This document shows positions 45,188 through 61,227 of a stretch of 64,000 bases of DNA, in pieces. The stretch is taken from the NCBI GenBank assembly GCA_014055465.1, contig WIAF01000010.1, positions 1 through 64,000 on the forward strand, given 5' to 3'. The notes under the pieces were generated by a model. That model did no database searches and had not been told where the DNA came from. It saw only the letters and a program-made list of their open reading frames with translations. Each line of letters starts with the position of its first letter. Within the stretch, counting starts at the first letter, position 1. This DNA comes from Nitrospira sp. CR1.1 (GTDB taxonomy: Bacteria > Nitrospirota > Nitrospiria > Nitrospirales > Nitrospiraceae). The position numbers and the translations under genes were made by a program.

Positions 45188-46252
45188 CTAGTGGCCTGTA
45201 ACAGGTAATTGTGTACCGATGCGCCGAGATGGATCACAGTATTTCCACTTCACGATCTTGGGGGCCTTATTGTAGTGGCGGATGTAGCGCATCAGTTTCT
45301 TGTCGAGGTCCTTCACGGACGTGAAGACGCCCCGTGCGATCACATCACGCTCGATCTTGGCGAACCAGAGTTCGACCTGGTTCAGCCACGACGAGTAGGT
45401 CGGCGTGAAATGCAGATGCACCGTCGAATGGGTCTGCAGAAACTCGGTGACCCGCGTGGTCTTGTGCGCCGAGAGGTTGTCTGCAATCACATGGATCTCC
45501 AGGCCCTTGGGTTGATTGGCCACGAGGTCCGTCAGGAACGCGATGAATTGCTCGGAGGTGTGGCGGTCGGCCGTCTTGCCGAGCACCTCGCCCGTTTTGG
45601 TATTGAACGCGGCATAGAGGGAAAGCGTGCCGTGCCGGTAATATTCGAAGCCATGCCGTTCCGCCCGTCCCGGCGACAAGGGCAGCACCGGATCCTTGCG
45701 GTCCAAGACCTGGATCGCTGTTTTCTCGTCCACACAAAACACCGCTGCATGCTGCGGTGGGTTCAGATAGAGGCCGATGATGTCAGCGGCCTTTTTCTCG
45801 AAGTCCGGGTCAGTGGACGCCAGATATCGCTCCAGCCGCTGGGGCTGGAGCCCATGCTTCGCCCAGACTCGTGCGACCCGCATATGGCTGACCCCGAGCT
45901 GGGCCGCAAGCTTGCGAGTGCTCCAGTGCGTCGAGCCGTCGGCTGGCGCCCGTCGTGTGGCCTCCAGGATGCGGGCTTCCATCTGAGGAGTGTGCCGCAG
46001 GGGAGCTTGCCCGCGATGACGACTATACAGCCCGGCCAACCGCTCAGCGGCAAACCGCTGGCTCCAGGTCGCCACAAAGCCTCGGCTACACCCCACGGCG
46101 TGACACACGGCATCCCAGGTCGCCCCCTCAGCCAGGAGCAGAATCACGCGGGCTCGCCGAGCGGTTTCGGCCCGCCCGGTGCGGCTCCTCGCTCGTCTGG
46201 TGAGTTCCATTCGTTCCCGTTTCGTCAGGACCATCGTGTTCTCCATGAACAC
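45188..46252 (-). CDS. IS630-family transposase
   Basis: The 354-aa protein has an N-terminal helix-turn-helix with ARRARVILLLAEGATWDAVCH and a winged-helix/HTH_29 region. The DDE domain shows catalytic residues in VFCVDEKTAIQ, IHVIADNLSAHK and SWLNQVELWFAKIER. No internal stop is present, so it is probably active. The TAG stop is made from the duplicated TA and one host base, so the insertion site itself supplies the stop. An in-frame ATG at 46234 would give 348 aa. Confidence 0.93.
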   Translation of the reverse strand: MFMENTMVLTKRERMELTRRARSRTGRAETARRARVILLLAEGATWDAVCHAVGCSRGFVATWSQRFAAERLAGLYSRHRGQAPLRHTPQMEARILEATRRAPADGSTHWSTRKLAAQLGVSHMRVARVWAKHGLQPQRLERYLASTDPDFEKKAADIIGLYLNPPQHAAVFCVDEKTAIQVLDRKDPVLPLSPGRAERHGFEYYRHGTLSLYAAFNTKTGEVLGKTADRHTSEQFIAFLTDLVANQPKGLEIHVIADNLSAHKTTRVTEFLQTHSTVHLHFTPTYSSWLNQVELWFAKIERDVIARGVFTSVKDLDKKLMRYIRHYNKAPKIVKWKYCDPSRRIGTQLPVTGH

Positions 46253-47368: not shown

Positions 47369-48235
47369 TTATCTTTCCTTCGTTCTGTCTGGCCAGGGAA
47401 GCGTACCATCTAATTCTCGACAGTACGGGTCACTATCTTCAGCTTCCTCGCTCGCTGTACTTCCTCTCGCAGACAGAGAATCTTCCTCCAACCAGAGCAA
47501 CGACAACATTCGATCCCATTCAGGCAGATACCGTGACTCCTCATAGAGGGTTCCCCCTCGAGTCCAGTCTTCAAACCATTCTGTCGGATCAACCTCGCAA
47601 GGACCGTCCTGAACAAGCTGGGCTCCTTGCGCTGCCAGCGATGAAGGCGGAACAGGATATCCAGTTTGAACCCAGGCACCCATTTCTCTCAGGGAAGGGG
47701 AACGGGTGGCATACCGAACGATTCCGTGTTCAGACAATACAAAGGTGCATGGATTGGCATTCAGAGCCGAAAATCGTGATCCAGTTGCTGTTAGGGAAGC
47801 CTTAAACTGTTTCCCCAACGCGATCACTGCATCAAACCCGATTTCAGCATCATTGACGAGTGGCCTGAAATGATCAGCGGGCAATAGGATTTCAGCGGCA
47901 AAAATGTCGCAGAGCACTTCGCTTTGGGAACGCTTCGTATAACGTTGTGAGTCACTCTTGCCGGCGTGTTCGTTGGGAAGATCGAGATAAATATGTCCAA
48001 GTTCATGACAAATCGTAAAGCGTTGCCGCTCTTCGAGATGCCCCTTGTTCACAATGATGTGCCACTTGCCTTTGATAGGTAGGGAGTGGCCGGACTCGTT
48101 ATGAGGAATATCCATCTCATCGTGAAGGACGGCGCCAATTGCCTCCACATACAGCTCCATTGAAACAGGAAACATAAGATGGGGAAAGCTCCGTACAAAG
48201 CTACGGGCTTTCATAATGACCGAGGACTCATCCAC
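47369..48235 (-). CDS. ImmA/IrrE-family metallopeptidase (CapP-like partner)
   Basis: The 288-aa protein has the zinc-peptidase motif HELGH (in FTICHELGHIYLDL) and the downstream acidic region EVLCDIFAAEILLP, as in ImmA/IrrE proteases. The about 130-residue C-terminal extension is acidic and not recognised. Its GTG start overlaps the end of the XRE gene, so the two are co-expressed. ImmA-type peptidases cleave their XRE repressor after a damage signal. The pair lies divergently upstream of the MBL/E2-E1-JAB/patatin operon, as CapH-CapP does for CBASS. Confidence 0.85.
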   Translation of the reverse strand: MDESSVIMKARSFVRSFPHLMFPVSMELYVEAIGAVLHDEMDIPHNESGHSLPIKGKWHIIVNKGHLEERQRFTICHELGHIYLDLPNEHAGKSDSQRYTKRSQSEVLCDIFAAEILLPADHFRPLVNDAEIGFDAVIALGKQFKASLTATGSRFSALNANPCTFVLSEHGIVRYATRSPSLREMGAWVQTGYPVPPSSLAAQGAQLVQDGPCEVDPTEWFEDWTRGGTLYEESRYLPEWDRMLSLLWLEEDSLSARGSTASEEAEDSDPYCRELDGTLPWPDRTKER

Positions 48236-48617
48236 CTTCCATAGTCTCCCTAATCTTACGGATCTGTTCGAGCACTCTTCCCCAGGCTTCCCTTCCTATT
48301 GGCCGGCCACGCGATCTCATCCGAGCAGCGGATTCAAAGTCCTCGATAGAAACATTCACGTTTTCCAAAGCATAGTTGAGGAGATCTTCGTCGACAGGCT
48401 GCTGTACCAGGAACTTCAAGATTCTTGCTTTGCGTTCTCCCGGTCGCAGAGCCCGTATCAAGCTATCCACGGTGTCATCCGAGGGATCAGCCTTTTCCCC
48501 TGTCTCCAGCCGGTGCACATAGGCATGGTCGAGATCGGCTAGTTGACCCAATTGTCGAAACGACAGGCCCTTTTCGGTCCTGAGGCGCCCAAGCAATCCA
48601 CCAAACCCTATCGGCAT
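48228..48617 (-). CDS. XRE-family transcriptional regulator (CapH-like)
   Basis: The 129-aa protein has an N-terminal helix-turn-helix (LGRLRTEKGLSFRQLGQLADL, then HAYVHRLETGEK) and a C-terminal helical domain that could dimerise or be cut by the peptidase. ATG 48617 has AAGGGG upstream; a TTG at 48632 would add five residues. It overlaps the ImmA-like gene downstream and faces away from the DUF2188/MBL operon, with repeated TTGTC/GACAA sites between. It is inferred to repress both directions. Confidence 0.85.
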   Translation of the reverse strand: MPIGFGGLLGRLRTEKGLSFRQLGQLADLDHAYVHRLETGEKADPSDDTVDSLIRALRPGERKARILKFLVQQPVDEDLLNYALENVNVSIEDFESAARMRSRGRPIGREAWGRVLEQIRKIRETMEGG

Positions 48618-48624
48618 AGGTCCC

Positions 48625-48682
48625 CTTGACAAGAAAATGAGTTGTCGATACAGTGTTGTCCAGCACTATATGTACAGACAAC
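48625..48682. promoter_or_regulatory. Candidate XRE operator cluster
   Basis: GTTGTC occurs at 48641-48646 and 48655-48660, and its inverse GACAAC at 48677-48682, so the last two form an inverted repeat with a 16-base spacer. A further CTTGACAAG palindrome lies at 48625-48633. The cluster is just upstream of the XRE start and within the divergent intergenic region (48618-48876). This is where autorepression and control of the defence-type operon would be expected. Confidence 0.5.
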
Positions 48683-48876
48683 GCACAATCGGACTTTCGT
48701 TGTGATGTTCACCTTGCTGAATGAACGATTAAGAACGTTTGTCGCCCTACTGAACAACAAAATGTACTCCACGCCACAAACCAATGCAAGCCGTAGGGGA
48801 GTGGAATGGGACCATGCGACCTGCATCAGTGAAAGCGAAGACCGTCAACCGATTCATTAACAAGAAAGGAGAGTTC

Positions 48877-49119
48877 ATGGGGAAAAATGATCGATACGTT
48901 GTTAAGCATGAACATGGATGGGCGGTAAAAAAACCGGGCGCTGAACGGGCGAGCAGCATTCACAGCACGCAGCACGAGGCTGAACGATCGGCAAAAAACA
49001 CCGTTGCAAACCTCGGCGGGGGAGAAGTGAGGATTCAAGGACGCGACGGGCAATGGAGAGATTCAGATACTGTGCCACCCGGCAATGATCCCATGCCGCC
49101 GCGCGATCGCAAACACTGA
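48877..49119 (+). CDS. DUF2188-family small protein
   Basis: The 80-aa protein starts at ATG 48877 behind AAAGGAGA. It matches the DUF2188 pattern: RYVVKHEHGWAVKKPGAERA, a TQ/EA helix (STQHEAERSAK) and a GEVRIQGRDGQW strand, ending DPMPPRDRKH. DUF2188 proteins are small and uncharacterised. It lies 63 bp before the MBL gene on the same strand and is probably the first gene of that operon. It is too unlike beta-grasp proteins to be the missing ubiquitin-like partner and has no Gly-Gly tail. Confidence 0.75.
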   Translation: MGKNDRYVVKHEHGWAVKKPGAERASSIHSTQHEAERSAKNTVANLGGGEVRIQGRDGQWRDSDTVPPGNDPMPPRDRKH

Positions 49120-49182
49120 GGCTGCCGTTATGCCCGCGCCATAGCTCCAACATGATCCAGGCGCTATCAAGAAAGGAACACT

Positions 49183-50340
49183 ATGAGCGATCCACATAAG
49201 ATTCTCTGTTATCCGGTGGGGAATGGCGACACCACGCAAATTATTTTGTCCAACGGTCGACGCATACTGCTCGATTACTCTCACCGGCAAAACGGAGAAG
49301 ATAGAGAAACGCCAGAGATTGATCTCAAGGGGCGACTACAAGAAGAGCTGAAAAACGCCAGGCGAGATTATTTCGACGTGGTTGCCTTCACCCATGCTGA
49401 CCGTGACCACATCCAGGGCAGCACAGATTTCTTCGAACTGCAACACGCAGAAAAATACCAGGGTGAAGGCCGCATAAAAATCCGCTGCTTGTGGGTTCCG
49501 GCTGCGATGTTGCTGGAAGAGGCCGAAAGAGACCAACAGAGTGAAGAATTTTGTATCCTTCGTCAGGAAGCTCGACACCGGCTCCTTGAGGGCAAGGACA
49601 TACTCGTGTTCTCCAAGCCGGATGCGCTCAAGGAATGGCTGGAATCAAAACTCAAAGAACGAGGCGAAGCCGCCAATTCACGCGATCATCTCTTTATTGA
49701 CGCCGGAACCATTGTCCCTGGCTTTGCTCTGGGATACGACGGCGTAGAGTTCTTTTGTCATTCTCCATTCATTAAACACTGTGATGGATTTGACATCGTC
49801 AGAAACTCTGCCGCGCTCGTGTTCAATATCCGCTTTCTCATTGATGGGGCAAGTTATGACTATCTCCATGTTGGGGATGCTAAATGGACCGACATGGAAG
49901 AGATCGTGAATACCACGTGCTATCACAAGAATGACGATCGGCTCACCTGGGATCTTTACAACATCCCTCATCACTGCAGTTACCTGGCCTTAAGTGACGA
50001 GAAAGGTGACAACGAAACCGATCCTAAGCCACTCGTAAAACATCTGCTCTTGCAAGGAAAGAGTGATGCCTACATGGTCAGCTCCAGTAAACCCATTCCC
50101 GATCTGAAGGAATCTTATACAGAGATTCAACCTCCACACATTCAAGCCCGTAAGGCATACGAGAGACATCTTAAGGCAGTTGAGGGCCGGAAGTTTCTTG
50201 TGACAATGGAAGAACCAAACGCGAGGAAACCCGAACCACTTCTGTTTGAGATCACAAGCGGTGGAGTTACTTGGCGCCCATCAACCTCCATCGGAGCTTC
50301 ATCCATCTTGACGTCTCGTCCACCGAGAGCCGGATCATGA
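49183..50340 (+). CDS. Metallo-beta-lactamase-fold hydrolase (ComEC-like)
   Basis: The 385-aa soluble protein starts with the MBL strand KILCYPVGNGDTTQIIL and has the metal motif HADRDH at residues 71-76 (HxDxDH form). Further metal-ligand candidates are the GD pair in YDYLHVGDAKW (about 231-232) and IPHHCSY (about 261-267). No membrane helix is present, so it is the stand-alone MBL type related to the ComEC nuclease domain. The substrate could be a nucleic acid, nucleotide or thioester and is unknown. It overlaps the E2-E1-JAB gene by 4 bp (ATGA). Bacterial E1/E2 gene clusters with an MBL neighbour have been described. Confidence 0.88.
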   Translation: MSDPHKILCYPVGNGDTTQIILSNGRRILLDYSHRQNGEDRETPEIDLKGRLQEELKNARRDYFDVVAFTHADRDHIQGSTDFFELQHAEKYQGEGRIKIRCLWVPAAMLLEEAERDQQSEEFCILRQEARHRLLEGKDILVFSKPDALKEWLESKLKERGEAANSRDHLFIDAGTIVPGFALGYDGVEFFCHSPFIKHCDGFDIVRNSAALVFNIRFLIDGASYDYLHVGDAKWTDMEEIVNTTCYHKNDDRLTWDLYNIPHHCSYLALSDEKGDNETDPKPLVKHLLLQGKSDAYMVSSSKPIPDLKESYTEIQPPHIQARKAYERHLKAVEGRKFLVTMEEPNARKPEPLLFEITSGGVTWRPSTSIGASSILTSRPPRAGS

Positions 50341-52607
50341 ACGAAGACTACTACACCCTTCCTCATTTCCGTGAGTTGGACGACGAGAACCAGCTTACCA
50401 TTCCTCGCGCTCAAGCTCTGCTGACTGCGGTAAGGCGGCAACGTGATTATTCTGTCCGACAACTCCTTCAGACGGAGGATGGCGCCTGTGAATGTATCGT
50501 TGTTGATGTCGAAACCGATGGGGTACCGAAGAACAATCGGCACGGAATTAGATATAGAGAACGATTAGCTCTGTGCGTGCCCATCAACGCCAAAGAATTG
50601 GTCATTGTCCTTGCGCTTCGCAAGGACTTTCCCGCACTCATTCATCAGAATCAGATGCCCCAGAACACACCGAGAAGTCTGTGCCTCTATTTCGAGCCAC
50701 CCATTTCAGTGGCTCGAACATGGACTCCGCAGACCTTTCTCAGGCGAATTCCATGGTGGCTTGAAAATAGTGCAACGGATCAGCTTCATCCCGCAGACCA
50801 GCCCGTAGAACGTCTATTTTTTGTTAGCAGGTATGAGCTAGTGCTGCCTTGGAACCTGGAGCAGCTCCGTACGGACAAAGATCTTCGTTTGATCATTGCA
50901 CATGGTCCTAAACGTCAAAACGGTGGGGGCACATACTTTCTCGAAGCCATCTCGGCAAATAGCCAAGTCTCAAATGGCTCGATCCGGCCCATCGAATTCA
51001 CGCTTCCTGCCATTGTACAAGGTCATATCGAAAGTGACCCTACAACGCTAGGAGAACTAGCCGATCTTCTCGAGAGCCGAGAGATTAACTTTCTTCAACT
51101 GCTCAAGGATACATCGTCTAAACTGGTTGGGGAAATGGGTATGCCTGAGTTCGCAGATGACGTGCTTTCAGTCATCATCCTTAGCATTCCAGTGAGGCGA
51201 GCAGAAGAACGGATAGCAAGAACAATCACGCATAGAGCATTTGTTGTTGGCGTTGGCGCGTTGAAACTTGGCGCTCTTACCGGAGCGCTGTTCTCCCTCG
51301 ACGTCCACGATGGCAAAAAAAACACGAAAACGTATTTCAATGCAGCCGGAGTCTTGGGTGACACATCGACAGCTGAGTGGCGTGACCAGGAAATTTTACC
51401 GATGGAGGTACTGTATCGGAATGACGCCGCTGCGTGCAGGAGACAATCCGGCGTAAGTGATGAAGGTCCTTCCGGAGTATTGATCGGTGCAGGGTCGCTT
51501 GGAAGTGCATTGCTTAATCTATGGGGTCGTTCCGGATGGGGACGGTGGACCGCGATTGACAACGACCATATTAAGCCACACAACCTTACCAGACATACAG
51601 CCTTTGCCCAGCATGTTGGTCATCCAAAGGCAATGGTCGTCGCGGAACTCCATGAGGCAGCGATGCATGGTGCCAGTAGTATTACTCCTTTGCATGCTGA
51701 TGCTTGCGATTTTTCTCAGGCTTCTGTGATGAATGCACTGGCTCCCGCCCAATTGGTCATTGATGCATCGACGTCTCTTGACTATCCCCGCGGTGCAAGT
51801 CAGATCGACAACATAGGCCGACATATAACTGTATTTGTTACGCCCAACGGCCATGCGGCTGTGTTGCTTGCTGAAGATGAAAAACGGAGTATTCGACTGA
51901 GAAGTCTAGAGGCACAGTACTATCGCGCACTAATCCAGGAATCCTGGGGAAAGTCCCACCTTGATGGAATGCACTCCTTTTGGAGCGGTGCGAGCTGTCG
52001 AGATATATCCATGGTGATGCCATACTCCAGAATTATGAGCCATGCCGGCATATTAGCAGAACAGATCCCGATGATATCGCTTCGTCCAGAAGCCGTCATT
52101 CGGATTTGGCAGCGTGATCCCAATTGGGGATCGGTCGTGGTGCATGACTGCCCAGTAGCACAAGAACACCACTTCCAGTTTGGCGAAACAGATCTGTACC
52201 TCGATGAGGCACTAACACAACAACTCCGATCGTGGAGAACTGCTCACATCCCAAATGAGACCGGCGGAGTTCTATTAGGCTACTATGACTTCAACATTTC
52301 TGCAGCAATAGTCGTTGCAGCCCTACCGCCGCCCCCGGACAGCACATCGAGTCCTCATTCATTCGAGCGCGGGGTTGAAGGTGCATTGGACGCAGTACAA
52401 GAGGCATCGCGCCGAACAGCGGGAATTGTTGGTTATATTGGAGAGTGGCATAGTCATCCACCAAAACACTCGGCGTCGCCGAGCCAGCACGACCTCATTC
52501 AGCTCGAGTATCTTGCACGCGGCATGTCGCAAAATGGACTTCCTGCTGTTCAACTGATAGTGGGTGAACAAGACATGCATCTACTTCAGGGCACGATGAG
52601 AGAATAA
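50337..52607 (+). CDS. Single-chain E2-E1-JAB ubiquitin-system-like protein
   Basis: The 756-aa protein (ATG 50337, overlapping the MBL stop) joins three enzyme modules. Residues about 1-170 are E2-like, with HQN, PRSLCLYFEPP (catalytic Cys116) and WTPQTFLRRIPWWLE. About 170-370 is a middle region of unknown fold. About 375-620 is a ThiF/E1 domain with nucleotide loop GAGSLGS (384-390), acidic AIDNDHIKPHNLTRH, and a likely adenylation-transfer Cys554 in SGASCRD. About 625-756 is a JAB/JAMM peptidase with Glu641, HSH 705-707, Ser716 and Asp719. All catalytic motifs are intact. It should activate, transfer and trim a modifier or target, but no modifier gene is seen. It is equivalent to CBASS Cap2 plus Cap3 in one chain. 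Confidence 0.9.
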   Translation: MNEDYYTLPHFRELDDENQLTIPRAQALLTAVRRQRDYSVRQLLQTEDGACECIVVDVETDGVPKNNRHGIRYRERLALCVPINAKELVIVLALRKDFPALIHQNQMPQNTPRSLCLYFEPPISVARTWTPQTFLRRIPWWLENSATDQLHPADQPVERLFFVSRYELVLPWNLEQLRTDKDLRLIIAHGPKRQNGGGTYFLEAISANSQVSNGSIRPIEFTLPAIVQGHIESDPTTLGELADLLESREINFLQLLKDTSSKLVGEMGMPEFADDVLSVIILSIPVRRAEERIARTITHRAFVVGVGALKLGALTGALFSLDVHDGKKNTKTYFNAAGVLGDTSTAEWRDQEILPMEVLYRNDAAACRRQSGVSDEGPSGVLIGAGSLGSALLNLWGRSGWGRWTAIDNDHIKPHNLTRHTAFAQHVGHPKAMVVAELHEAAMHGASSITPLHADACDFSQASVMNALAPAQLVIDASTSLDYPRGASQIDNIGRHITVFVTPNGHAAVLLAEDEKRSIRLRSLEAQYYRALIQESWGKSHLDGMHSFWSGASCRDISMVMPYSRIMSHAGILAEQIPMISLRPEAVIRIWQRDPNWGSVVVHDCPVAQEHHFQFGETDLYLDEALTQQLRSWRTAHIPNETGGVLLGYYDFNISAAIVVAALPPPPDSTSSPHSFERGVEGALDAVQEASRRTAGIVGYIGEWHSHPPKHSASPSQHDLIQLEYLARGMSQNGLPAVQLIVGEQDMHLLQGTMRE

Positions 52608-52609
52608 TT

Positions 52610-53701
52610 GTGCCTTCCAGCATTGCACTCGCTCTATCCGGCGGCGGCATCCGAGCAATGGTGTTCCATCTTGGAGTCATACGACTGCTCGCAGAGCGTC
52701 ACTTGCTCGAGAACGTCGAGCGGATCTCTACGGTATCAGGGGGGAGCTTGCTTGTGGGGCTTATGTTCCAAGCTAACCAGTATCAATGGCCATCCTCAGA
52801 CTACTTTATTGAAGTGGTGTACCCAACTCTTCGTGAGTCACTGTGCAAAACAAGTTTTCAGTGGGGGGCAGTCAGGCAACTTCTCAACCCTGTAAACGTG
52901 CCGTTTCTCCTTTCTCGGGCAAACCTATTGGCGTTAGCGATCAAACAAGAATGGCAGATCGACATCAAGCTATCCGAATTGCCGAGTAAACCCGAATGGT
53001 CCATTAATGCGACAACAGCGGAGAATGGAAAACGTTTTCGGTTCAAGCAAAGCGATATTGGAGACTATCAACTCGGCTATGCTCATCCTGGAAACTTTCT
53101 TCTTGCGAATGCGATGGCAGTCTCGGCAGCGTTTCCCGGAGGGTTCGGGCCGCTACAGTTGGACGCCACCCGCTTTGAGTGGCAAAAACGAGAGTGGAAT
53201 GCGCCCAAGGGCACTGAGCAGTCCGTCGATATCGGCTACAAAGTTCTACATCTATACGACGGGGGCATCTATGACAATCTTGGATTGGAACCATTTTTTG
53301 ATGCAGGACGCAGCAAGGCTAAGCACCCAGGGAACGCGATAATCGTCTCTGACGCTGGACGACCCTTGCCATCCGGCTTCGATTTCCTTGCGCTGAATCC
53401 GTTTCGACTTCAGCGTGTCGCCGACATCATGTCAGACCAGTCTCACGCCTTACGTGTTCGGACCTTCTCACGCTATCTCCAGGAAAGTCCCGGACGGGGC
53501 GCGTTCATGTACATTGGGACGCCTATCGAAGCCACATTACCTTGCAAGTCAGCGACATACGCCTCAAACTTTCCTACAACATTGCGCCGAATTGATTGGA
53601 GGGAGTTTGACTTACTCGCGAACCATGGATATCAGGTCGCCAAACAAGTTGAGCAAGCCTATGGCTTATACGACCACTCAGAAACGAGAGAGAACCGATG
53701 A
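52610..53701 (+). CDS. Patatin-like phospholipase, likely effector
   Basis: The 363-aa enzyme starts at GTG two bases after the previous stop. Motifs are the oxyanion loop SGGGIRAM (10-17), nucleophile Ser43 in STVSGGSLL (the VSGGS form of the lipase elbow), AVSAAFPGGFG, and the catalytic Asp217 in LYDGGIYDNLGLEP. No membrane segment is seen. Patatin lipases degrade membrane phospholipids and serve as effectors in CBASS and related immune systems. Here the gene is the last of the operon and is inferred to be the killing or membrane-damaging output controlled by the E2-E1-JAB protein. Confidence 0.9.
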   Translation: MPSSIALALSGGGIRAMVFHLGVIRLLAERHLLENVERISTVSGGSLLVGLMFQANQYQWPSSDYFIEVVYPTLRESLCKTSFQWGAVRQLLNPVNVPFLLSRANLLALAIKQEWQIDIKLSELPSKPEWSINATTAENGKRFRFKQSDIGDYQLGYAHPGNFLLANAMAVSAAFPGGFGPLQLDATRFEWQKREWNAPKGTEQSVDIGYKVLHLYDGGIYDNLGLEPFFDAGRSKAKHPGNAIIVSDAGRPLPSGFDFLALNPFRLQRVADIMSDQSHALRVRTFSRYLQESPGRGAFMYIGTPIEATLPCKSATYASNFPTTLRRIDWREFDLLANHGYQVAKQVEQAYGLYDHSETRENR

Positions 53702-53733: not shown

Positions 53734-54492
53734 TTATCTTGCGCAAGACGAGGTCCAAACAACCAAACTAAGGGCAAGGTGAGCAGTGATTCTCACCGTG
53801 TCTTCGACGACATCCGTGATGGACGCATTGTTTCCACCAAACCAGACCGTGGCAGGTACCTTTCTGGGCCCCATCGGCTCCTCATCACGCTTGAGAATAG
53901 CCGCCGCTCCGGAATCAACCGGAAGGGTACGTCGCGGCCAACATTGCGCCGCTTTGGCACTGGGACTGAGCTCAAACCAGGCTCGACCGTGCTCACTTGC
54001 ACAAATCAGCGCGGCGGGACGATCTGTCAGTTGGACTAAACGCATGGCAGTCGCAGTGATACTGGTTTCAAATTGTTCCGCCAACCCTCGAACCGTTTCT
54101 AAGGTGAGAGGCTTGTCTTTCAAAAGCGGCTGAAACAAATACTGTGGCAGGAGCAATCCAGCTGCATAGCGATTGGCCACGCTTTCTCTATCACGTCCTT
54201 CCCACTGACACATCAGCTGTTCATGATCGCAAACGAGGGCAACTTTGCCGCGATGCTTCATCCAATGGCCCAATTCATGAGCGGCCGAAAATCTCTTTCT
54301 TGACGTGGTCGCCCGTTGGTCCACTGTGATAATTGCGCGATTGCCGTGACCGATAATCCGTCCTTCACACCCAACAAGCCGTTCGTAGATCACTGTGGCG
54401 CCGCAGTATTGCGCAATGGCTTCGATATCGATGTCACGAGGATCGGTAACGTGTAACGCTTTCAGCAGCGCCTCTGGATCGTCAGCAATCAT
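53734..54492 (-). CDS. ImmA/IrrE-family metallopeptidase, second
   Basis: The 252-aa protein has the zinc motif HELGH (SAAHELGHWMKH), the acidic second motif region ESVANRYAAGLLLPQ, and an extended C-terminus with Cys/Trp-rich segments. It is convergent with the patatin gene, 32 bp apart. It differs clearly from the peptidase at 47369-48235. No XRE gene is adjacent; the nearest upstream genes on the same strand are the 147-aa protein and the sigma-like protein, which may form its partner module. Confidence 0.85.
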   Translation of the reverse strand: MIADDPEALLKALHVTDPRDIDIEAIAQYCGATVIYERLVGCEGRIIGHGNRAIITVDQRATTSRKRFSAAHELGHWMKHRGKVALVCDHEQLMCQWEGRDRESVANRYAAGLLLPQYLFQPLLKDKPLTLETVRGLAEQFETSITATAMRLVQLTDRPAALICASEHGRAWFELSPSAKAAQCWPRRTLPVDSGAAAILKRDEEPMGPRKVPATVWFGGNNASITDVVEDTVRITAHLALSLVVWTSSCAR

Positions 54493-54984
54493 AATTGGTC
54501 GTACAGGAACAAAGAGCCTTATGAGTCCACAGCCATCGCATCACGGAGCGGGAATTCGCCTGACGATCCAATTTGGAGGACATGTGAGATCGCATGGATA
54601 AAGCAGGCAGGTCTCATAGTACTGTACACCCGTCGCGACGGCAAGTTAGCCACGTTTTTATGCCTATGTCTCGATTCAGAAGGCGAGGAGCCAGACCAAC
54701 ATTAAGGATCACAAACCTCTAGAACTTCCGATCCCCTGTAACTATCGGAGCGTCGAAGTAAGGTTGGATTGACTGCGGAGGGTTAAAATGCAGTCTGCAC
54801 CTGATTGCGGTCAAAGGAGGAAGTACCGTGAGAGGCTTTGAGCGACTTCACACATGATTGACGGTGATACTTCGGCGATGGTGCGTCATCAGGGCAGGAA
54901 GGGAAAAGACCCTCGCTGCACTCCGATTCTGGACAGCTCGTGACTGTGGTGTCGCACCTCAACACGTTCGCACGGGTTATCTCC
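54493..54984 (+). other. Intergenic stretch of 492 bases
   Basis: No gene with recognisable features is present. An AAAGGAGGAAG at about 54815 looks like a ribosome-binding site but is followed by only a short frame. A promoter for the second ImmA-like gene is expected in the first 100 bases but I cannot define it. Confidence 0.45.
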
Positions 54985-55428
54985 TTAGGGTTTCTTGAAT
55001 TTGAGAAGGCCCAAGACATAAAGCTGCCGCAAGAGGCTGTCGATGTCTGCCGGCGTCATATCGCTCAGTTTGCGATACTGACCGGTTAGCACTGCGGGTT
55101 TCAGATAGTGATGGTGCGCCAGACAGGCCTTGAGGAGCTGCAACTTATCTTTCATCGAAGTCGGCAATGACAGGCGGTCACGTTTTAGTGAGGTCACCTC
55201 TTTTTGGTACGTCTGGCGGGATTCAGCCAGTGCGTGGTGAGCAGACTCTCCGAGCGCCTCTGCGAACACTCTTGTCGCGCGCTGACCAAACTGTTGTGGG
55301 TCCAAGCCACTTCCCCGAATTTCTTCGTCCAATTCTTCTTCTGAGAGGTTCATAATTGCTTCGGCCTCTAAATCGAGCAGGCGCTCATATTGAGACCAAA
55401 CGTCGTTAGCTTTAGTTTTTGATTTCAT
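54985..55428 (-). CDS. Hypothetical helical protein downstream of sigma-like gene
   Basis: The 147-aa protein is charged and helical (MNLSEEELDEEIRGSG; ESRQTYQKEVTSLKRDR) with a C-terminal LLRQLYVLGLLKFKK. Its ATG overlaps the sigma-like stop (55425-55428), so translation is coupled. No family is recognised. It could be an anti-sigma or adaptor protein, which is speculation from the overlap only. Confidence 0.65.
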   Translation of the reverse strand: MKSKTKANDVWSQYERLLDLEAEAIMNLSEEELDEEIRGSGLDPQQFGQRATRVFAEALGESAHHALAESRQTYQKEVTSLKRDRLSLPTSMKDKLQLLKACLAHHHYLKPAVLTGQYRKLSDMTPADIDSLLRQLYVLGLLKFKKP

Positions 55429-56048
55429 AACAGTCCTTCCAAGTTGCGTTTCCTAATCTTACTCGTGGCGCGTACTATCTGCATATTGTATACGGCGTAT
55501 TGCGGTTTTGTGATTTTTAGCCGCTGGCAGATTTCCGGACCGCTTAAGCCCTCAATTTGAAGCTGAAATACTTTCTCTCCCATGGAGTGTTGGCCTAGAA
55601 GAGCTGCCATGTGACACTTAATCTTGTCCAGAGCGATCTCGCGTCGCTTCAATTCCAACTCTTCTTCCGGATTTGGAAGGGCAGAGCGAAAGTCGTCTGC
55701 GGTCTTCGCCCTCACCTCGTTGTCGATATCTTCTTCATCTTTGGAATTGAGCGAGGAGACAAGGATTGGCTCCTGATACCGTTGACTATTGTGATGCTGC
55801 GCATGGTTACTCACTTCTGATCTGATTACCCAGCGCAGATGATCGCGCATCGAGTATTTTTTGTTCCAGGGCCGCGATCCTGCGAGTGTCGCCTCGATGG
55901 CTTCGTGCACGAAGTCTTCATCCTCCCGCCCTCCTGCCAATACGCCGATGCGAGCCACAAGCTGCCTTGCTAGCCACATTAAGCTCTTGCGTTCCTCTAG
56001 GCTTAGTGCCTCGATGGCGCGTCGGATTTCATCCTGAGTCGCTACCAT
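55425..56048 (-). CDS. Sigma-70/ECF-like helix-turn-helix protein
   Basis: The 207-aa protein resembles an RNA-polymerase sigma factor in layout. An N-terminal region has DEDFVHEAIEATLAGSRPWN and SMRDHLRWVIRSEVSNHAQHH (region 2-like). The C-terminal region has GEKVFQLQIEGLSGPEICQR followed by LKITKPQYAVYN (region 4-like HTH). It is transcribed away from tnsA across a 153-bp gap, so it may control the transposition operon or the downstream genes. Confidence 0.7.
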   Translation of the reverse strand: MVATQDEIRRAIEALSLEERKSLMWLARQLVARIGVLAGGREDEDFVHEAIEATLAGSRPWNKKYSMRDHLRWVIRSEVSNHAQHHNSQRYQEPILVSSLNSKDEEDIDNEVRAKTADDFRSALPNPEEELELKRREIALDKIKCHMAALLGQHSMGEKVFQLQIEGLSGPEICQRLKITKPQYAVYNMQIVRATSKIRKRNLEGLL

Positions 56049-56201
56049 AATTGACTTCGATCCAGAACTCGAAACTGCTGGCTCAAATATTTGTCTACAA
56101 TCGTTCCGTTAAAAAACCGACGAAAGATCAGTATAGCCGAGTATGCCTTAAGGAGAGTTACCTCCGAGGTGGTTAGGATAACACGACAAAGAAGGATGGA
56201 A

Positions 56202-56909
56202 ATGAGAAAAGCGATTTGGGAACAGAAAACGGTCGAACGCGACGGCGTAAAGCCGGTGTGGAACCAACCGCGTGGGAACTATGGAAGTAACTTTTGGCAG
56301 ATGTATAGCCGGAAATTGGATCGAGATGTTCACTTCTACAGCAGTCTTGAGCGCGACCATGGCGTGATCGTCGAAGCCGATCCCACGGTCGCATGGTTCT
56401 GCGAACAACCGCTACGCATCAACATTAAGTTGGACGGCCGGGATCGTGAATCAGTGATGGACATGCTGATCCAGTTCACGGACGGCCGGACGGAATATCG
56501 TGAAGTCAAATATGCGAGTGATGTGCAGCGAGTTGACGATGGCTCTCGAGTGGCTCGGCAATTGGCCGCTCAACGTGAATGGGCGTTTGTCACCGCGAAT
56601 GACTACAAGATCGTCACGGATGAGGAAATCAGACGGAATGCCGTGTTCCTTCGGAACTGGAAACAGATCTTGGCGTATCTCGCCACCTACGCGTCCTATG
56701 ATCTCGCGGAGATTGAAACTCAACTCCTCGCCGCGTTCGACATCGAGCCGTCCTGGTCCCTAAGAGATCTAGAACGTCATATCGCTCGTCCAGACCGTCA
56801 GACGGTAAAGGCCGCGATCTTTCGCCTCATCCATAGTGGTCTGTGCACGGCTCCGCTCGACGTGTACCCGTTGACCAACTCCTTAACCATACAGCGAGGG
56901 ACAAAATGA
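56202..56909 (+). CDS. tnsA: TnsA-like transposon endonuclease
   Basis: From ATG 56202 (GAAGG six bases upstream) the protein has 235 aa. The nuclease core shows Glu50 in FYSSLERDHG, Asp87 in SVMDMLIQF and Glu101-Val-Lys103 in EYREVKYASDV, the E-D-ExK arrangement of TnsA. A helical C-terminal domain follows. TnsA nicks the 5' ends of the element so that TnsAB moves it by cut-and-paste. The frame is open upstream to a TTG at 56091; ATG 56196 is also possible. It overlaps tnsB as ATGA. Confidence 0.88.
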   Translation: MRKAIWEQKTVERDGVKPVWNQPRGNYGSNFWQMYSRKLDRDVHFYSSLERDHGVIVEADPTVAWFCEQPLRINIKLDGRDRESVMDMLIQFTDGRTEYREVKYASDVQRVDDGSRVARQLAAQREWAFVTANDYKIVTDEEIRRNAVFLRNWKQILAYLATYASYDLAEIETQLLAAFDIEPSWSLRDLERHIARPDRQTVKAAIFRLIHSGLCTAPLDVYPLTNSLTIQRGTK

Positions 56910-58846
56910 CGGTATCGAAGTCTCGAATGGATCGCGACTCACTCCCGCCCGATGTGACAGACCTCTCTCACTGGCCGACCGTCGATCTCGCCCTTTTAGA
57001 CGAGAACGATGCAGACCGAGTCGCGAGGCGGATTCAGGCCGTCCGTGCCTATATCGAAGGACAACCCGTTGGAATCCTCTCGAAACAAGCGGCCGTGCCA
57101 CGGCAAGAAGTGTATCGGCTCGTCAAACGTTGCATGAAGTTCCACCCTGACGGCCGAATCTGGGGGTTTCGAGCCCTGCTGCCAGCATGTCGTATCACTC
57201 CCTACGTTCGAACAGCCACGATAGATGGCTCCAGACCTTCTCAGCGGGGAGGGGCAGCTGGGGCGCTCACGATGCTGTTCGACCGATACCCGACGATCCA
57301 AAAAGCGGTGGACTCCTTGTTCCTGAAGAAAGTGAAAGAGCATGTCGTCCAGGAGTCCCGCATGCCGGTCAAGGCGATTCATAAGCACTTCATTGAGAAG
57401 TGTAAGGAAGCTGGCCTGACCGCAAGACACTATCCACTCAACATGAACCATCGGGGGCGGCGTGCGCTGTCGAGCTATCTGAAGCGGCTCTTCAAATCGA
57501 ACCTGAAACAAGCAGTAAAGGCGCGCCATGGGGACGACGCCGCGCGTGCGCTGGCGTCGAGGGAAGCGGGTCCTGACAGCATCGTGACCAGGCCGTTCGA
57601 ACGGGTTGAGTTTGACGGCCATCGGATCGATGCGGTTTGTACGATTGACCTCCCGAATCCCTATGGAGGCATTCAACAGCTTGTCCTTGATCGACTGTGG
57701 CTACTCGCCATCATTGACGTGAAGACTCGCGCTATTTTGGGGTACACCTTGGTGCTAAATCCCGAATACAACGCAGAGGACGTCCTCCGTTGCATCAAGC
57801 ATGCGCTGACGCCCTGGAGACCGATGACCTTAACCATCACCGGATTGAAGTATACGAAGGGGAGTGGGCTCCCTTCAGGAGTCCATGCCGAATGCGCCTG
57901 GGCGTTGTGGGACGAATTATGGTTCGACAACGCCAAAGCCAATCTGGCCGATGCGGTCAGGTCGAATCTCAGTCGAGTAGTCGGATGTGCCATTAATGCT
58001 GGCCCTGTGAAAACCCCTCAGCGTCGACCGTTCATTGAACGGCTCTTTCAAACGTTGGAAGAGAACGGATTTCATCGGCTGCCGTCCACGACGGGCAACG
58101 GTCCAGATGATCCTCGTCGTGACGACCCAGAAGCCGCGGCGCTACGCTGGAATATCTCGTACCAACACCTTGTTGAACTGACCGACGTACTCATTGCTCG
58201 TTACAATGCCGAGCCGCACACGGGATTGGGCAATCGGTCACCGCTCGAGATGCTTGAGTACTTTATTGTGAATGAAGGATGCGAGTTCCGGGCAGTGCCT
58301 GAACAGAAGCGACAAGATCTCGCGCTGCTCCACATCCGCGTTGTGCGGTGTATTCGCGGAGATGTGACGCAGGGGAAGTGCCCCTACGTTGAATTTGAAG
58401 GCGTCCGCTATTACAACGATGTCCTCCGTCACAGTCCAGACCTCGTCGGCGAACACCTCTCGCTCCTCGTCGATCCGGACGATCTCCGCTGTGTCACCGC
58501 GTATCTCGAGGACGGCCGAGAATTTGGTGTGCTCACGGCCCATGGGCTTTGGGGCCGGACGCCACATACGCTCACCGTTCGAAAGGCCATTCATAAACTC
58601 CGAGCTCGAAAGCTGATCTTCTATACGGATAATGAGGACCCGATCCTCGTCTATATGGACTTCCTCAATCAGCAAGCGGCGACGAGTAAGCTGGCGAGGG
58701 GACAGTCGGCAAAACTCCTGGCAGGGCTTCAGGCAGTTCCCCCGACTCAGCCCACGTCGTCGATCGCCGATGTCACAGAGTCGAATCCCCCAGCGTCGTC
58801 CCGCACGGTCTATACCCCCGCCATGAGGAAGACCCGCCTCGATTAA
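56906..58846 (+). CDS. tnsB: TnsB-like DDE transposase
   Basis: The 646-aa transposase belongs to the Mu/Tn7 DDE family. Catalytic residues are Asp237 (VEFDGHRIDA), Asp341 (LWFDNAKAN) and Glu378 (RPFIERLFQTLEENGFH). The N-terminal part has helix-turn-helix regions (GILSKQAAVPRQEVYRLVK) that bind the repeats at the element ends, and the C-terminal tail is the expected TnsC contact. The ATG overlaps the tnsA stop. All motifs are intact. Confidence 0.92.
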   Translation: MTVSKSRMDRDSLPPDVTDLSHWPTVDLALLDENDADRVARRIQAVRAYIEGQPVGILSKQAAVPRQEVYRLVKRCMKFHPDGRIWGFRALLPACRITPYVRTATIDGSRPSQRGGAAGALTMLFDRYPTIQKAVDSLFLKKVKEHVVQESRMPVKAIHKHFIEKCKEAGLTARHYPLNMNHRGRRALSSYLKRLFKSNLKQAVKARHGDDAARALASREAGPDSIVTRPFERVEFDGHRIDAVCTIDLPNPYGGIQQLVLDRLWLLAIIDVKTRAILGYTLVLNPEYNAEDVLRCIKHALTPWRPMTLTITGLKYTKGSGLPSGVHAECAWALWDELWFDNAKANLADAVRSNLSRVVGCAINAGPVKTPQRRPFIERLFQTLEENGFHRLPSTTGNGPDDPRRDDPEAAALRWNISYQHLVELTDVLIARYNAEPHTGLGNRSPLEMLEYFIVNEGCEFRAVPEQKRQDLALLHIRVVRCIRGDVTQGKCPYVEFEGVRYYNDVLRHSPDLVGEHLSLLVDPDDLRCVTAYLEDGREFGVLTAHGLWGRTPHTLTVRKAIHKLRARKLIFYTDNEDPILVYMDFLNQQAATSKLARGQSAKLLAGLQAVPPTQPTSSIADVTESNPPASSRTVYTPAMRKTRLD

Positions 58847-58867
58847 CCTCAGTGAAAGGAGCAATAA

Positions 58868-59836
58868 ATGTCACATGTCCTACACCTAAGACCTTCTGTG
58901 CCTTCTGGAACCCACCCGATCGAAACAGGACGGTATACACTCTTCACGCCACCATTGGGCCGCTTCTGCGACGACCTCAAAAACTGGGTCAATAATCGAG
59001 CGGCAGGTGCCATCGTGACGGCGCCGCCCAGATTTGGAAAATCCAAAGGGATTCGATTTGCCGTCAACGAGTTGCGCGAGGAACTTGGCGCGACGCTCCC
59101 GATCCTAACGTTTTGCTGTCAGGACCATCAGTACCCAACCGAATCACGGTTTTTTGAAAGTCTACTCAGCGATTTCGGTCATAGTCTCAGCCTCCGTGGA
59201 ACCGCCAGCGCAAAGCGGGCACGGGTAATACAGTTTTTGGTACAGGAAGCCTGCGCCAATGACCATCGACGATTGGTGTTGATTGGAGACGAGGCGCAGA
59301 AACTCCGAGAACCCCACTATAAATGGTTGGTCGATATCTATAATGGGCTGGATCGCCACGATATCGCGACAACCGTTGTGCTTGTCGGGCAACCGGAATT
59401 AGTCCATCAACGAGACGCCTTTGAAACGGCCAAGAAAATGCAGATTGTCGGCCGGTTCATGGTACACCTTCACCGATTTGCCGGCCTGCGGAACCAGAAG
59501 GATTTTGCCTACTGCCTGAAGGGCTACGACGATGAGTCCGAGTACCCTGAGGCCAGCGGCTATTCGTTCACACGATATTTCTTTCCCTCAGGATTTGAGG
59601 CGGGATGGCGCTTGGCCGGGGAAGCAAAGGTTCTCTGGGAGGCATTCCAGCATGTGAGGGCTGAGGCCAAGCTACCTGGTAAAGCTGAAATCCCGATGCA
59701 GTACTTTTCACGAACTGTGGAATTCGCGCTCAAGGACTACAGGTCGATGGACGGTGGCCCACCGACCATTTCATTGAATCAGTGGAAAGAAGCCATCGAA
59801 CGTTCTGGATACCGTGATGCGGGGCGATACTTATGA
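58868..59836 (+). CDS. tnsC: TnsC/TniB-like AAA+ ATPase
   Basis: The 322-aa regulator has Walker A APPRFGKSK (residues 52-60, with Ala where Gly is usual at the first position), Walker B LVLIGDEAQ (136-144) and sensor residues near VVLVGQPELV. It assembles on DNA and passes the target choice of TniQ to TnsAB. It lies 21 bp after tnsB behind GTGAAAGGAGC and overlaps tniQ by 4 bp. Confidence 0.9.
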   Translation: MSHVLHLRPSVPSGTHPIETGRYTLFTPPLGRFCDDLKNWVNNRAAGAIVTAPPRFGKSKGIRFAVNELREELGATLPILTFCCQDHQYPTESRFFESLLSDFGHSLSLRGTASAKRARVIQFLVQEACANDHRRLVLIGDEAQKLREPHYKWLVDIYNGLDRHDIATTVVLVGQPELVHQRDAFETAKKMQIVGRFMVHLHRFAGLRNQKDFAYCLKGYDDESEYPEASGYSFTRYFFPSGFEAGWRLAGEAKVLWEAFQHVRAEAKLPGKAEIPMQYFSRTVEFALKDYRSMDGGPPTISLNQWKEAIERSGYRDAGRYL

Positions 59837-61227
59837 GCCAATTGAACGAAGGACATGATCAGATGGTGCCACACACACGATATACGTGGGATGCCAGCCA
59901 ATGCGTTCCGTTTGAGTCCACGTGGTCAATCTTTCAGAAGTTCATGGGGTTTAATGCCTGCGGGGCGCGAGATATTCAGCGCGAATTCGGGCTTGCGACG
60001 AAAAGACACCATCCTCAAAACTGGTCGGATCGGGATCGGAACTTACACGACTGGGGCGCGCTCAATCCGGAGCTCGTGCAGCGCGCACTGAACTTGACCG
60101 ACCTCCACATGAGGACGGCACGCACTGTTGACTATATTCGCCCGGATGAAGCGAAAGTGTTGGCCAGTCGATCCCTTCGCATCTGCCCGAAATGTATCAG
60201 GGGAGGCTTTCATACGCCTCTCCACCAGTTGGTATTCATTCCCCAATGCCCTGTGCACAAGCAACCGCTCCTGAGCATCTGTGTTGACTGCGGTAAGCCG
60301 ACGCCTCTGTACTCTTTGTTGAGGCAGTCATTTTGTAACCCTTATGGGTGTGCTGAATGCGGAGCGGTCTGGTGGCAACGGAGTCGTGTCGGACAGATGA
60401 CAACAGGGGAGCAAGAAGAGCGGTTTCGCGTCATGTCTGAGATCGGGGAGTGGCTCACGAAAAGAAGGGAGGACCGAACGATTGAGGCGCAAATCTCTAA
60501 ATTGGCTCGGTTTATACCAGACGAGCATGAAATTCAGGCCTACGTTCGACGGCTGCCGGAGAGATGGGCGGACGTTTTGGGAGTGAACGTGCCACACCAG
60601 ATTGCTGAATTGCGAGAGACAGATTTACATGTCATGGTGGAGTATACGGCGTGGAGCGTCGATGGATCGAGTTCGTCCGGATTGTTAGACAACAAGAAAT
60701 ATTTCGAGGTGTATCGCGCGATTCGCCGTGCACTCACAAGGCGAGTTCATAAAGCCCACCGCGAGTGCTTTGAAAAAATGGGGCGTGGGATTTGGTTTCC
60801 GGTCACAACCAGAGAAGTGCCCGTTCGGCAATTCTGCCAAGAGGCTTATGCGTTGCTTCTCTGGAGAATGTTTTGGGAAAACATCGATGTTCCACAAAAG
60901 TTCTTTTCGCGGCAGCTCGTACTCATTCATCGTGAGATAGACTTTGTATCGGACCGAATCCCGTCGGACCTCTCTCCAGAGGCTGCCATGCGAATATTCG
61001 GGCTGGAATGTCTGAGAACGTATCGGCGATGTCAGGAGCTTGGGAGCCTGATGCGGCAAAAAGAGCATATCGGTTTCCCGTTGTATCGCCTGAATAAGGA
61101 TCGCGCTGGCGAATGGGTTGTGAAGGTCCCTAAAATCGGAAACAGACAGAAACTCCATTGGTGGTGGCCGAGGCGATGGGAAAAGGCTCTTTCGATTCAA
61201 GACCACGAAGCAAAACGTGCTGCTTAG
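59833..61227 (+). CDS. tniQ: TniQ/TnsD-type target-selection protein
   Basis: The 464-aa protein has the TniQ zinc-finger array CPKC (118-121), CPVH (139-142), CVDC (150-153) and Cys168, CAEC (173-176). A C-terminal half with helix-turn-helix-like segments follows. TniQ proteins choose the insertion site, either a fixed DNA sequence (TnsD-like) or through a CRISPR complex. The long C-terminus and the absence of any Cas gene favour a DNA-binding, site-specific role here. It is the last gene of the transposition operon. Confidence 0.88.
   Translation: MSQLNEGHDQMVPHTRYTWDASQCVPFESTWSIFQKFMGFNACGARDIQREFGLATKRHHPQNWSDRDRNLHDWGALNPELVQRALNLTDLHMRTARTVDYIRPDEAKVLASRSLRICPKCIRGGFHTPLHQLVFIPQCPVHKQPLLSICVDCGKPTPLYSLLRQSFCNPYGCAECGAVWWQRSRVGQMTTGEQEERFRVMSEIGEWLTKRREDRTIEAQISKLARFIPDEHEIQAYVRRLPERWADVLGVNVPHQIAELRETDLHVMVEYTAWSVDGSSSSGLLDNKKYFEVYRAIRRALTRRVHKAHRECFEKMGRGIWFPVTTREVPVRQFCQEAYALLLWRMFWENIDVPQKFFSRQLVLIHREIDFVSDRIPSDLSPEAAMRIFGLECLRTYRRCQELGSLMRQKEHIGFPLYRLNKDRAGEWVVKVPKIGNRQKLHWWWPRRWEKALSIQDHEAKRAA

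What the first reader, a model, noticed from the sequence alone, without database searches (positions are those of the whole stretch)
48228..53701. CBASS-like operon without a CD-NTase: MBL hydrolase, single-chain E2-E1-JAB and patatin under an XRE/ImmA pair
Seen: four same-strand genes (DUF2188, MBL, E2-E1-JAB, patatin); the last three overlap or nearly touch (ATGA at 50337, 2-bp gap at 52608). A divergent XRE gene overlaps an ImmA/IrrE peptidase gene. Known: type II CBASS uses E1-E2 Cap2, JAB Cap3, patatin CapV effectors, and in some systems CapH (XRE) with CapP (ImmA-like) control after DNA damage. Here no nucleotidyltransferase is present and an MBL hydrolase takes its place. Inference: an immune system in which the ubiquitin-like machinery activates or restrains a lipase, with the MBL as sensor or regulator. 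E1/E2/JAB clusters with MBL neighbours have been described; this full gene set with patatin and XRE/ImmA I do not know.
Basis: partly seen in the sequence, partly recalled or inferred. Interest (0 to 1): 0.88.

Follow-up and report, generated by a model that had tools for sequence, protein, structure and literature searches.

The report
Ubiquitin-like phage-defence operon with lipase
This is a member of a known but little-studied bacterial anti-phage system in which ubiquitin-like enzymes probably attach a nuclease-like protein to other molecules by its tail; relatives show that a membrane-attacking partner gene, here a lipase, is swapped between versions.

Summary
The genes are there as described. 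The core is not new: the MBL and the single-chain E2-E1-JAB match NCBIfam's "anti-phage 6A-MBL system" far above cut-off (388 vs 220 bits; 669 vs 320), and Iyer et al. 2006 listed the pair as operon type 6a.

Two findings go beyond that. (1) The MBL very probably takes the CD-NTase's place literally, as the protein that E1-E2 conjugates. Of 91 neighbouring MBLs, 69 end exactly in Gly and 21 more have it within 5 residues of the end. The tail is disordered in the AlphaFold model and poorly conserved except for a terminal R-A-G, as with cGAS in type II CBASS. (2) Patatin is one option in a membrane-effector slot: of 88 loci, 39 have only patatin, 40 only a small transmembrane protein, 2 both, 7 neither.

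The XRE/ImmA pair is CapH/CapP-like. Three genomes, the window's included, carry the whole set beside Tn7-like tns genes.

Conjugation, nuclease activity and lipase activation are inferred. No paper in the library searched holds "6A-MBL".

The parts
47369..48235 (-). ImmA/IrrE metalloprotease, CapP-like
   Evidence: Pfam Peptidase_M78 4.9e-13; PADLOC capP 6.2e-51
48228..48617 (-). XRE-family repressor, CapH-like (ATG start; an ORF from TTG reaches 48632)
   Evidence: Pfam HTH_31 9.4e-11; PADLOC capH 3e-12
48654..48683 (.). candidate operator: near-palindrome TGTTGTC..GACAAC/G between the divergent units
   Evidence: by eye the best conserved stretch of the non-coding part in 3 of 3 loci compared; reported as an inverted repeat (15-nt arms, 80%) in the two relatives, while in the window the tool paired shifted arms
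48626..48654 (+). sigma-70-like promoter match (TTGACA-17-TACAGT)
   Evidence: weak, 2 matches found against 5.3 expected in shuffles
48877..49119 (+). DUF2188 small protein (PADLOC candidate PDC-S16), operon leader gene
   Evidence: Pfam PF09954 9.5e-18; PDC-S16 2.1e-21; upstream of the MBL in 9 of 98 loci, two of them identical
49183..50340 (+). 6A-MBL MBL-fold protein; ComEC-like metal site H71-D73-D75-H76, D232, H263; disordered tail ending R382-A383-G384-S385
   Evidence: NCBIfam NF058524 3e-116; model pLDDT 91.3, tail mostly under 50; nearest fold ComEC MBL 9ic4 2.8e-13; tail conservation
50337..52607 (+). single-chain E2-E1-JAB (6A-MBL cap2_3): E2 Cys116, E1 glycines 384/386/389, E1 Cys554, JAMM E641/H705/H707/S716/D719 (roles assigned by position and recall)
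   Evidence: NCBIfam NF058523 8.7e-201; Pfam; PDB profile hits Cap2 7to3 2.8e-13 and peptidase 9ild 2.9e-11; these residues in 88 of 88 (D719 in 87)
52610..53701 (+). patatin-like phospholipase, oxyanion GGGxR 11-15, Ser43/Asp217 dyad
   Evidence: Pfam Patatin 3.5e-16; dyad invariant in 42 of 42; model pLDDT 89.8, patatin folds in PDB
53734..54492 (-). second ImmA/CapP-like protease, role unclear
   Evidence: Peptidase_M78 1.4e-12; capP 4.4e-57

Best explanation
A patatin-bearing 6A-MBL anti-phage operon. Proposed working: (1) CapH-like repressor and CapP-like protease keep the operon low and de-repress it on DNA damage (inferred from family). (2) The E1 domain adenylates the MBL's C-terminal R-A-G, passes it to the E2 cysteine and so conjugates the MBL to a target; the JAB domain trims residues after the glycine and removes conjugates (substrate identity strongly inferred; target unknown). 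(3) Conjugation licenses the MBL, a ComEC-like, probably DNA-cleaving enzyme (inferred). (4) The co-encoded membrane effector, here patatin, elsewhere a small transmembrane protein, damages the infected cell's membrane (inferred); how it is switched on is unknown.
For: System: NCBIfam NF058524 and NF058523 above cut-off; operon type 6a of Iyer 2006. Substrate: 69 of 91 MBLs (duplicates and a few partial ORFs included) end exactly in Gly and 21 more within 5 residues; the last, L117, has a frameshifted tail. In an 84-sequence subset 83 have [RK][AVQ]G near the end. Controls: 81 of 1120 ORFs without an MBL hit, 9 of 99 E2-E1-JAB and 0 of 46 patatins end in Gly; an R-A-G-like tail occurs in 81 MBLs but in only 2 other called ORFs of 1407 in all. 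Tail disordered. Same logic as cGAS and Cap2 in type II CBASS (passages of PMC10097602). E1, E2 and JAMM residues conserved in 88 loci. Effector slot: patatin only 39, TM only 40, both 2, neither 7 of 88; at least 7 switches on the tree among the 79 labelled rows. MBL fold nearest ComEC; a related defence MBL, HamM, becomes a DNase when cleaved (passages of PMC12799240). Control: CapH/CapP matches and conserved near-palindrome.
Against: No experiment. The C-terminal glycine could partly be inherited, since all MBLs are homologous. One diverged MBL over the family cut-off (L155) and L035 end in Gly but lack R-A-G. Four of 88 loci with full flanks have neither partner by my criteria; L085 has a calcineurin-like phosphoesterase there. 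TM genes come with a second MBL within 3 kb in 19 of 42 loci; the three second MBLs scanned are PADLOC PDC-M48B, so they may be a separate neighbouring system. The patatin is not recognisably CapV by sequence (no PADLOC hit; no PDB hit). The loci are the nearest relatives found, not an even sample, and the tree is a quick one with long branches and no shuffled-label control.
Confidence: 0.62

Rival explanations
1. Two-gene 6A-MBL (MBL plus E2-E1-JAB) is complete by itself, with the MBL nuclease as sole effector. Patatin and TM genes are independent defence genes that ride along in the same islands.
For: Iyer 2006 defines type 6a by two genes. Four of 88 loci with full flanks have neither partner by my criteria. 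TM partners come with a second MBL in 19 of 42 loci, PDC-M48B in the three scanned.
Against: Patatin lies downstream on the same strand, overlapping by 4 bp in 23 of 41 downstream cases among 98 loci. It is near-exclusive with TM genes (2 both where the margins predict about 20; Fisher 2e-15 ignoring relatedness).
Confidence: 0.2
2. The conjugated MBL acts as a signal, not a nuclease: conjugation localises it or makes it hydrolyse a small molecule or lipid that then activates the patatin or TM effector.
For: Effectors are swappable, as in CBASS. The second fold match is a phosphorylcholine esterase (1wra).
Against: Sequence and fold are nearest to the ComEC MBL domain, and the related defence MBL HamM is a DNase once cleaved.
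Confidence: 0.12
3. The E2-E1-JAB attaches the patatin or another protein, with the MBL merely a regulator.
For: Patatin is co-encoded in 41 of 88 loci.
Against: No patatin of 46 ends in Gly. The core occurs without adjacent patatin in 47 of 88 loci. The R-A-G tail is on the MBL. As an acceptor, however, patatin is not excluded.
Confidence: 0.05

Closest known systems
6A-MBL anti-phage system (NCBIfam NF058523/NF058524); operon type 6a of Iyer et al. 2006
   Same: Both core genes, adjacent, with a single-chain E2-E1-JAB; scores well above curated cut-offs.
   Different: The word patatin does not occur in the 2006 paper. NCBIfam shows only names here. I read only passages of the 2006 paper and no paper on 6A-MBL function, so a published account of the tail or of patatin elsewhere is not excluded.
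Type II CBASS (CD-NTase, Cap2, Cap3, effector such as CapV)
   Same: E2-E1 and JAB enzymes, a C-terminal Gly on the partner protein, patatin effector, CapH/CapP-type control.
   Different: No CD-NTase and hence no cyclic-nucleotide signal; JAB fused to E2-E1; MBL in its place; patatin matches no PADLOC model.
MBL pro-nucleases of Hachiman, AVAST, Lamassu and DRT (Science 2025, PMC12799240, passages)
   Same: ComEC-like MBL defence protein; PADLOC RTasMBL, LmuA and Avs1a models match weakly.
   Different: [quoted passage not shown] here no protease domain was found, but a conjugation machine and a C-terminal tag.
Bil and Bub ubiquitin-like pathways
   Same: E1, E2 and JAB enzymes (recalled); Bub operons with CapW, CapH/CapP or CapK/CapS control (EMBO J 2026 passages).
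   Different: No ubiquitin-like protein found among this operon's genes by Pfam.

Membership tests
6A-MBL system | MBL protein over NF058524 cut-off (220 bits) | tested here: met
   388.3 bits
6A-MBL system | E2-E1-JAB in one chain over NF058523 cut-off (320 bits) | tested here: met
   668.9 bits
6A-MBL system | the two genes adjacent | tested here: met
   4-bp overlap at 50337-50340
6A-MBL system | protects against phage | not testable with these tools
   only NCBIfam's name says so
Type II CBASS | CD-NTase in the operon | tested here: not met
   no such domain among the operon genes scanned; no SMODS match in the own genome
Type II CBASS | Cap2-like E2-E1 and Cap3-like JAB | tested here: met
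   PDB profile hits Cap2 7to3 and peptidase 9ild, weak NCBIfam Cap3 match; here fused
Type II CBASS | C-terminal Gly or Ala on the conjugated partner | tested here: met
   on the MBL instead of a CD-NTase; in the window one Ser follows
CapV phospholipase | sequence match to CapV models | tested here: not met
   no PADLOC hit at E up to 1; CapV folds only among general patatin matches
CapH/CapP regulators | XRE repressor overlapping ImmA-type protease, divergent from a defence operon | tested here: met
   PADLOC capH 3e-12, capP 6.2e-51; layout
CapH/CapP regulators | ssDNA-activated cleavage of the repressor | not testable with these tools
   -
ComEC-like MBL nuclease | ComEC-like metal-binding motif and fold | tested here: met
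   H71, D75, H76, D232, H263 in 84 of 84, D73 in 83; 9ic4 2.8e-13; motif reading recalled
ComEC-like MBL nuclease | DNA cleavage | not testable with these tools
   -
Bil/Bub pathways | ubiquitin-like beta-grasp protein gene | tested here: not met
   no Ubl domain among operon genes by Pfam

The most novel reading that the evidence does not exclude
A whole folded enzyme, a ComEC-like MBL, is used as a protein modifier by a ubiquitin-like cascade, and its conjugation, with no nucleotide messenger, triggers interchangeable membrane-destroying partners (patatin or small TM proteins). In one subcluster of second MBLs (PDC-M48B type) 6 of 8 members also end in glycine, namely the 6 that directly follow the E2-E1-JAB, and could be a second modifier.
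Probability: 0.4. Interest if true: 0.85.

Novelty: new variant of a known kind. Interest (0 to 1): 0.6.

Why it matters
It points to the substrate of an E1-E2-JAB system described 20 years ago without a ubiquitin-like partner: the neighbouring MBL. That turns 6A-MBL from an uncharacterised pair into a testable conjugation pathway parallel to type II CBASS. It suggests a general rule that Cap2-like enzymes evolved to tag whichever immune enzyme sits beside them. It also shows CBASS-like swapping of membrane effectors without a cyclic nucleotide, which raises the question of what switches the effectors on.

Tried and rejected
Led nowhere or rejected: the single-protein scan of genome contigs found no relative (the alignment scan worked). 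Phage genomes: 0 of 50,697 records with a match. Patatin as CapV. A Ubl protein in the operon. Transposon ends: the repeat scan gave only weak matches. The GTTGTC palindrome search used a spacing that missed the site. Control with MBL relatives lacking E1-E2: one search gave 3 weak matches, and the 2 whose ends I printed do not end in Gly, too few to count. The PADLOC scan of 127 selected neighbour proteins listed no CD-NTase among the 25 families shown of 331, which does not exclude rare ones.

Rows dropped. Of 16 viral loci only the 8 best (L122-L129) were analysed. Before the 88-locus count I dropped L050 and L053 (same E2-E1-JAB as L049 and L037), L129 (near relative of L083, not identical; its short upstream flank shows no partner) and seven loci with E2-E1-JAB ORFs under 640 aa (L098, L101, L113, L125-L128). 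L038 was left out throughout because its gene is broken in several pieces. The TM families are phmmer clusters with TM segments from a simple hydropathy rule; cluster C1 may be chained, and TM genes within 3 kb were counted, the only one lying over 1.2 kb away in L056, L078 and L092. Of the 4 full-flank loci with neither, L061 has a TM gene beyond 3 kb and L095 an opposite-strand patatin 342 bp away.

Literature: nine full-text searches were answered. One search found no paper with '6A-MBL'; in the other listings I saw, by title and abstract start, none on its pairing with patatin. I saw passages only of PMC1779556, PMC13373217, PMC10097602 and PMC12799240; 'patatin' does not occur in the first, second and fourth. 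Everything else is search listings or recall.

Full report
What is there. A divergent XRE-ImmA pair precedes DUF2188, MBL, E2-E1-JAB and patatin, the last three overlapping or 2 bp apart. A second ImmA gene follows, then two small genes and a Tn7-like set: tnsA and an AAA ATPase (tnsC) over Pfam's cut-offs, tnsB and tniQ only by weak matches and gene order. The own genome holds one copy of the E2-E1-JAB and no SMODS-type CD-NTase.

The organism. A genome of the same class (G408) has a contig of the same length (4,234,406 bases) as the Candidatus Manganitrophus chromosome of L113, which NCBI places in Nitrospiria, Nitrospirota. The window's phylum is therefore inferred to be Nitrospirota.

What it is. 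NCBIfam identifies both core proteins as the "anti-phage 6A-MBL system": MBL NF058524, 388 bits against a cut-off of 220; E2-E1-JAB NF058523, 669 against 320. In 2006 Iyer et al. listed the same pair as operon type 6a, a triple-module E2-E1-JAB protein "almost always next to" an MBL in most operons (passages of PMC1779556). [quoted passage not shown] The core is therefore known. I could not find the work behind NCBIfam's "anti-phage" name: no paper in the library holds "6A-MBL".

Distribution. In this phylum 5 of 395 genomes hold the E2-E1-JAB over cut-off; in the class 6 of 246 hold the MBL over cut-off. Of 72,556 plasmid records 264 match, 168 of them Klebsiella; of 50,697 phage records none. 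A genome scan found at least 468 relatives, of which the best 80 were kept; a viral-contig scan gave 16 loci. I analysed 98 loci: the window, four from genome handles, five from plasmids, these 80, and the best 8 of the 16.

The effector slot. A patatin ORF adjoins the core in the same orientation in 41 of 88 usable loci (in L105, L115 and L118 it lies before the MBL), and a small predicted transmembrane protein lies within 3 kb in 42. Both occur in 2, neither in 7, of which 3 (L035, L100, L123) are cut by the contig end. Downstream patatins overlap the E2-E1-JAB stop by 4 bp in 23 of 41 cases among the 98 loci. The Ser43/Asp217 dyad and the oxyanion glycines are invariant in 42 of 42. On the E2-E1-JAB tree at least 7 changes between patatin and TM are needed (79 labelled rows, quick tree, some long branches, no shuffled control). 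Second MBLs lie within 3 kb in 19 of 42 TM loci, 3 of 39 patatin-only loci and 4 of 7 with neither; the three scanned match PADLOC's candidate PDC-M48B. The pattern resembles effector swapping in CBASS (recalled). By sequence the patatin matches no PADLOC model and no PDB chain; its model has general patatin folds as matches, PlpD first, CapE and CapV further down.

The MBL tail. Of 91 MBL ORFs beside the E2-E1-JAB (duplicates and a few partial ORFs included), 69 end exactly in Gly, 21 have it 1-5 residues from the end, and one (L117) is frameshifted there, its other frame ending in a similar R-A-G tail. In the 84-sequence alignment R382, A383 and G384 are 96, 92 and 99% conserved, while the 16 residues before them average 38% and the folded core 56%. 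The AlphaFold model is confident to about residue 360 and mostly below pLDDT 50 from 369 on. Controls: 81 of 1120 ORFs without an MBL hit, 9 of 99 E2-E1-JAB and 0 of 46 patatins end in Gly, and 2 non-MBL ORFs have an R-A-G-like tail. Of 28 second MBLs in these loci 6 end in Gly, none with R-A-G. Two diverged members, L035 and L155, end in Gly without R-A-G. In type II CBASS the CD-NTase's C-terminal Gly or Ala is conserved where full Cap2 and Cap3 are encoded, not in other architectures, and is the point of conjugation (passages of PMC10097602). E1, E2 and JAMM residues are conserved here (88 of 88; D719 in 87); which cysteine is which is inferred from position. So the MBL is the likely conjugation substrate, and the JAB domain would trim the extra residues, such as the single Ser after R-A-G in the window.

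The MBL's activity. Its profile and fold match ComEC's MBL domain best, with HxDxDH, Asp232 and His263 conserved. A related MBL/trypsin-like-protease pair recurs in Hachiman, AVAST, Lamassu and DRT, and HamM of Hachiman becomes a DNase when the protease cuts it (passages of PMC12799240). Here a conjugation machine may do the unlocking. This is inference.

Control. The XRE and ImmA match PADLOC's capH and capP. In the three loci with the full set (window, L033, L154), a near-palindrome (window 48654-48683) stands out by eye in an otherwise diverged intergenic region. Other loci use WYL proteins (21 of 98), ImmA proteins (15, the window included) or CapS-like genes (5). DUF2188 lies 57-168 bp before the MBL in 9 of 98 loci, two of them identical. 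The same three loci have the tns genes after the defence set.

Verdict. A new variant of a known kind: a patatin-type 6A-MBL operon beside Tn7-like genes. Its relatives give two testable claims that I did not meet in the passages and listings I saw: the MBL's R-A-G tail as conjugation site, and a swappable membrane effector.

Noticed in passing
window 56091-61227: Tn7-like tnsA, tnsB, tnsC and tniQ-like genes beside the operon (tnsB and tniQ below Pfam cut-offs); two other genomes (L033, L154) carry tnsA, tnsB and at least part of tnsC in the same order after the same defence set.
   Followed up: partly
window 53734-56048: Second CapP-like ImmA plus two small genes, one with a weak sigma-70 region 4 match; the trio recurs in L033, L154 and, with a TM-type 6A-MBL operon, in L093. 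Possibly a protease-controlled sigma/anti-sigma switch.
   Followed up: partly
L036, L042, L045, L046, L047, L077: The second MBL (PDC-M48B type) directly after the E2-E1-JAB ends in Gly in these 6 although the residues before it vary; two further members of the subcluster (L061, L091), placed elsewhere, do not.
   Followed up: no
L127 9506-10519 (same ORF in L128): A 4-TM protein beside an E1-JAB remnant without an MBL has SPRAG near its own C-terminus.
   Followed up: no
L034 5213-7522: The MBL gene of genome G246 is split by a transposase-like ORF while E2-E1-JAB and patatin stay open.
   Followed up: no
L039, L063, L064, L065, L091: Four Nostocales loci carry a GHKL-ATPase gene and a 197-201-aa gene upstream that look like CapK/CapS; L091 has a relative of the second gene.
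   Followed up: partly
G094 and G117 genomes (L138-L141): Two genomes with the 6A-MBL operon also hold SMODS nucleotidyltransferase genes elsewhere.
   Followed up: no
L085 10191-11306: A calcineurin-like phosphoesterase gene directly follows the E2-E1-JAB where others have patatin or TM genes.
   Followed up: no
window 62457-63626 and 45188-46252: An IS605 OrfB/TnpB-type gene and a DDE_3 transposase flank the region.
   Followed up: no
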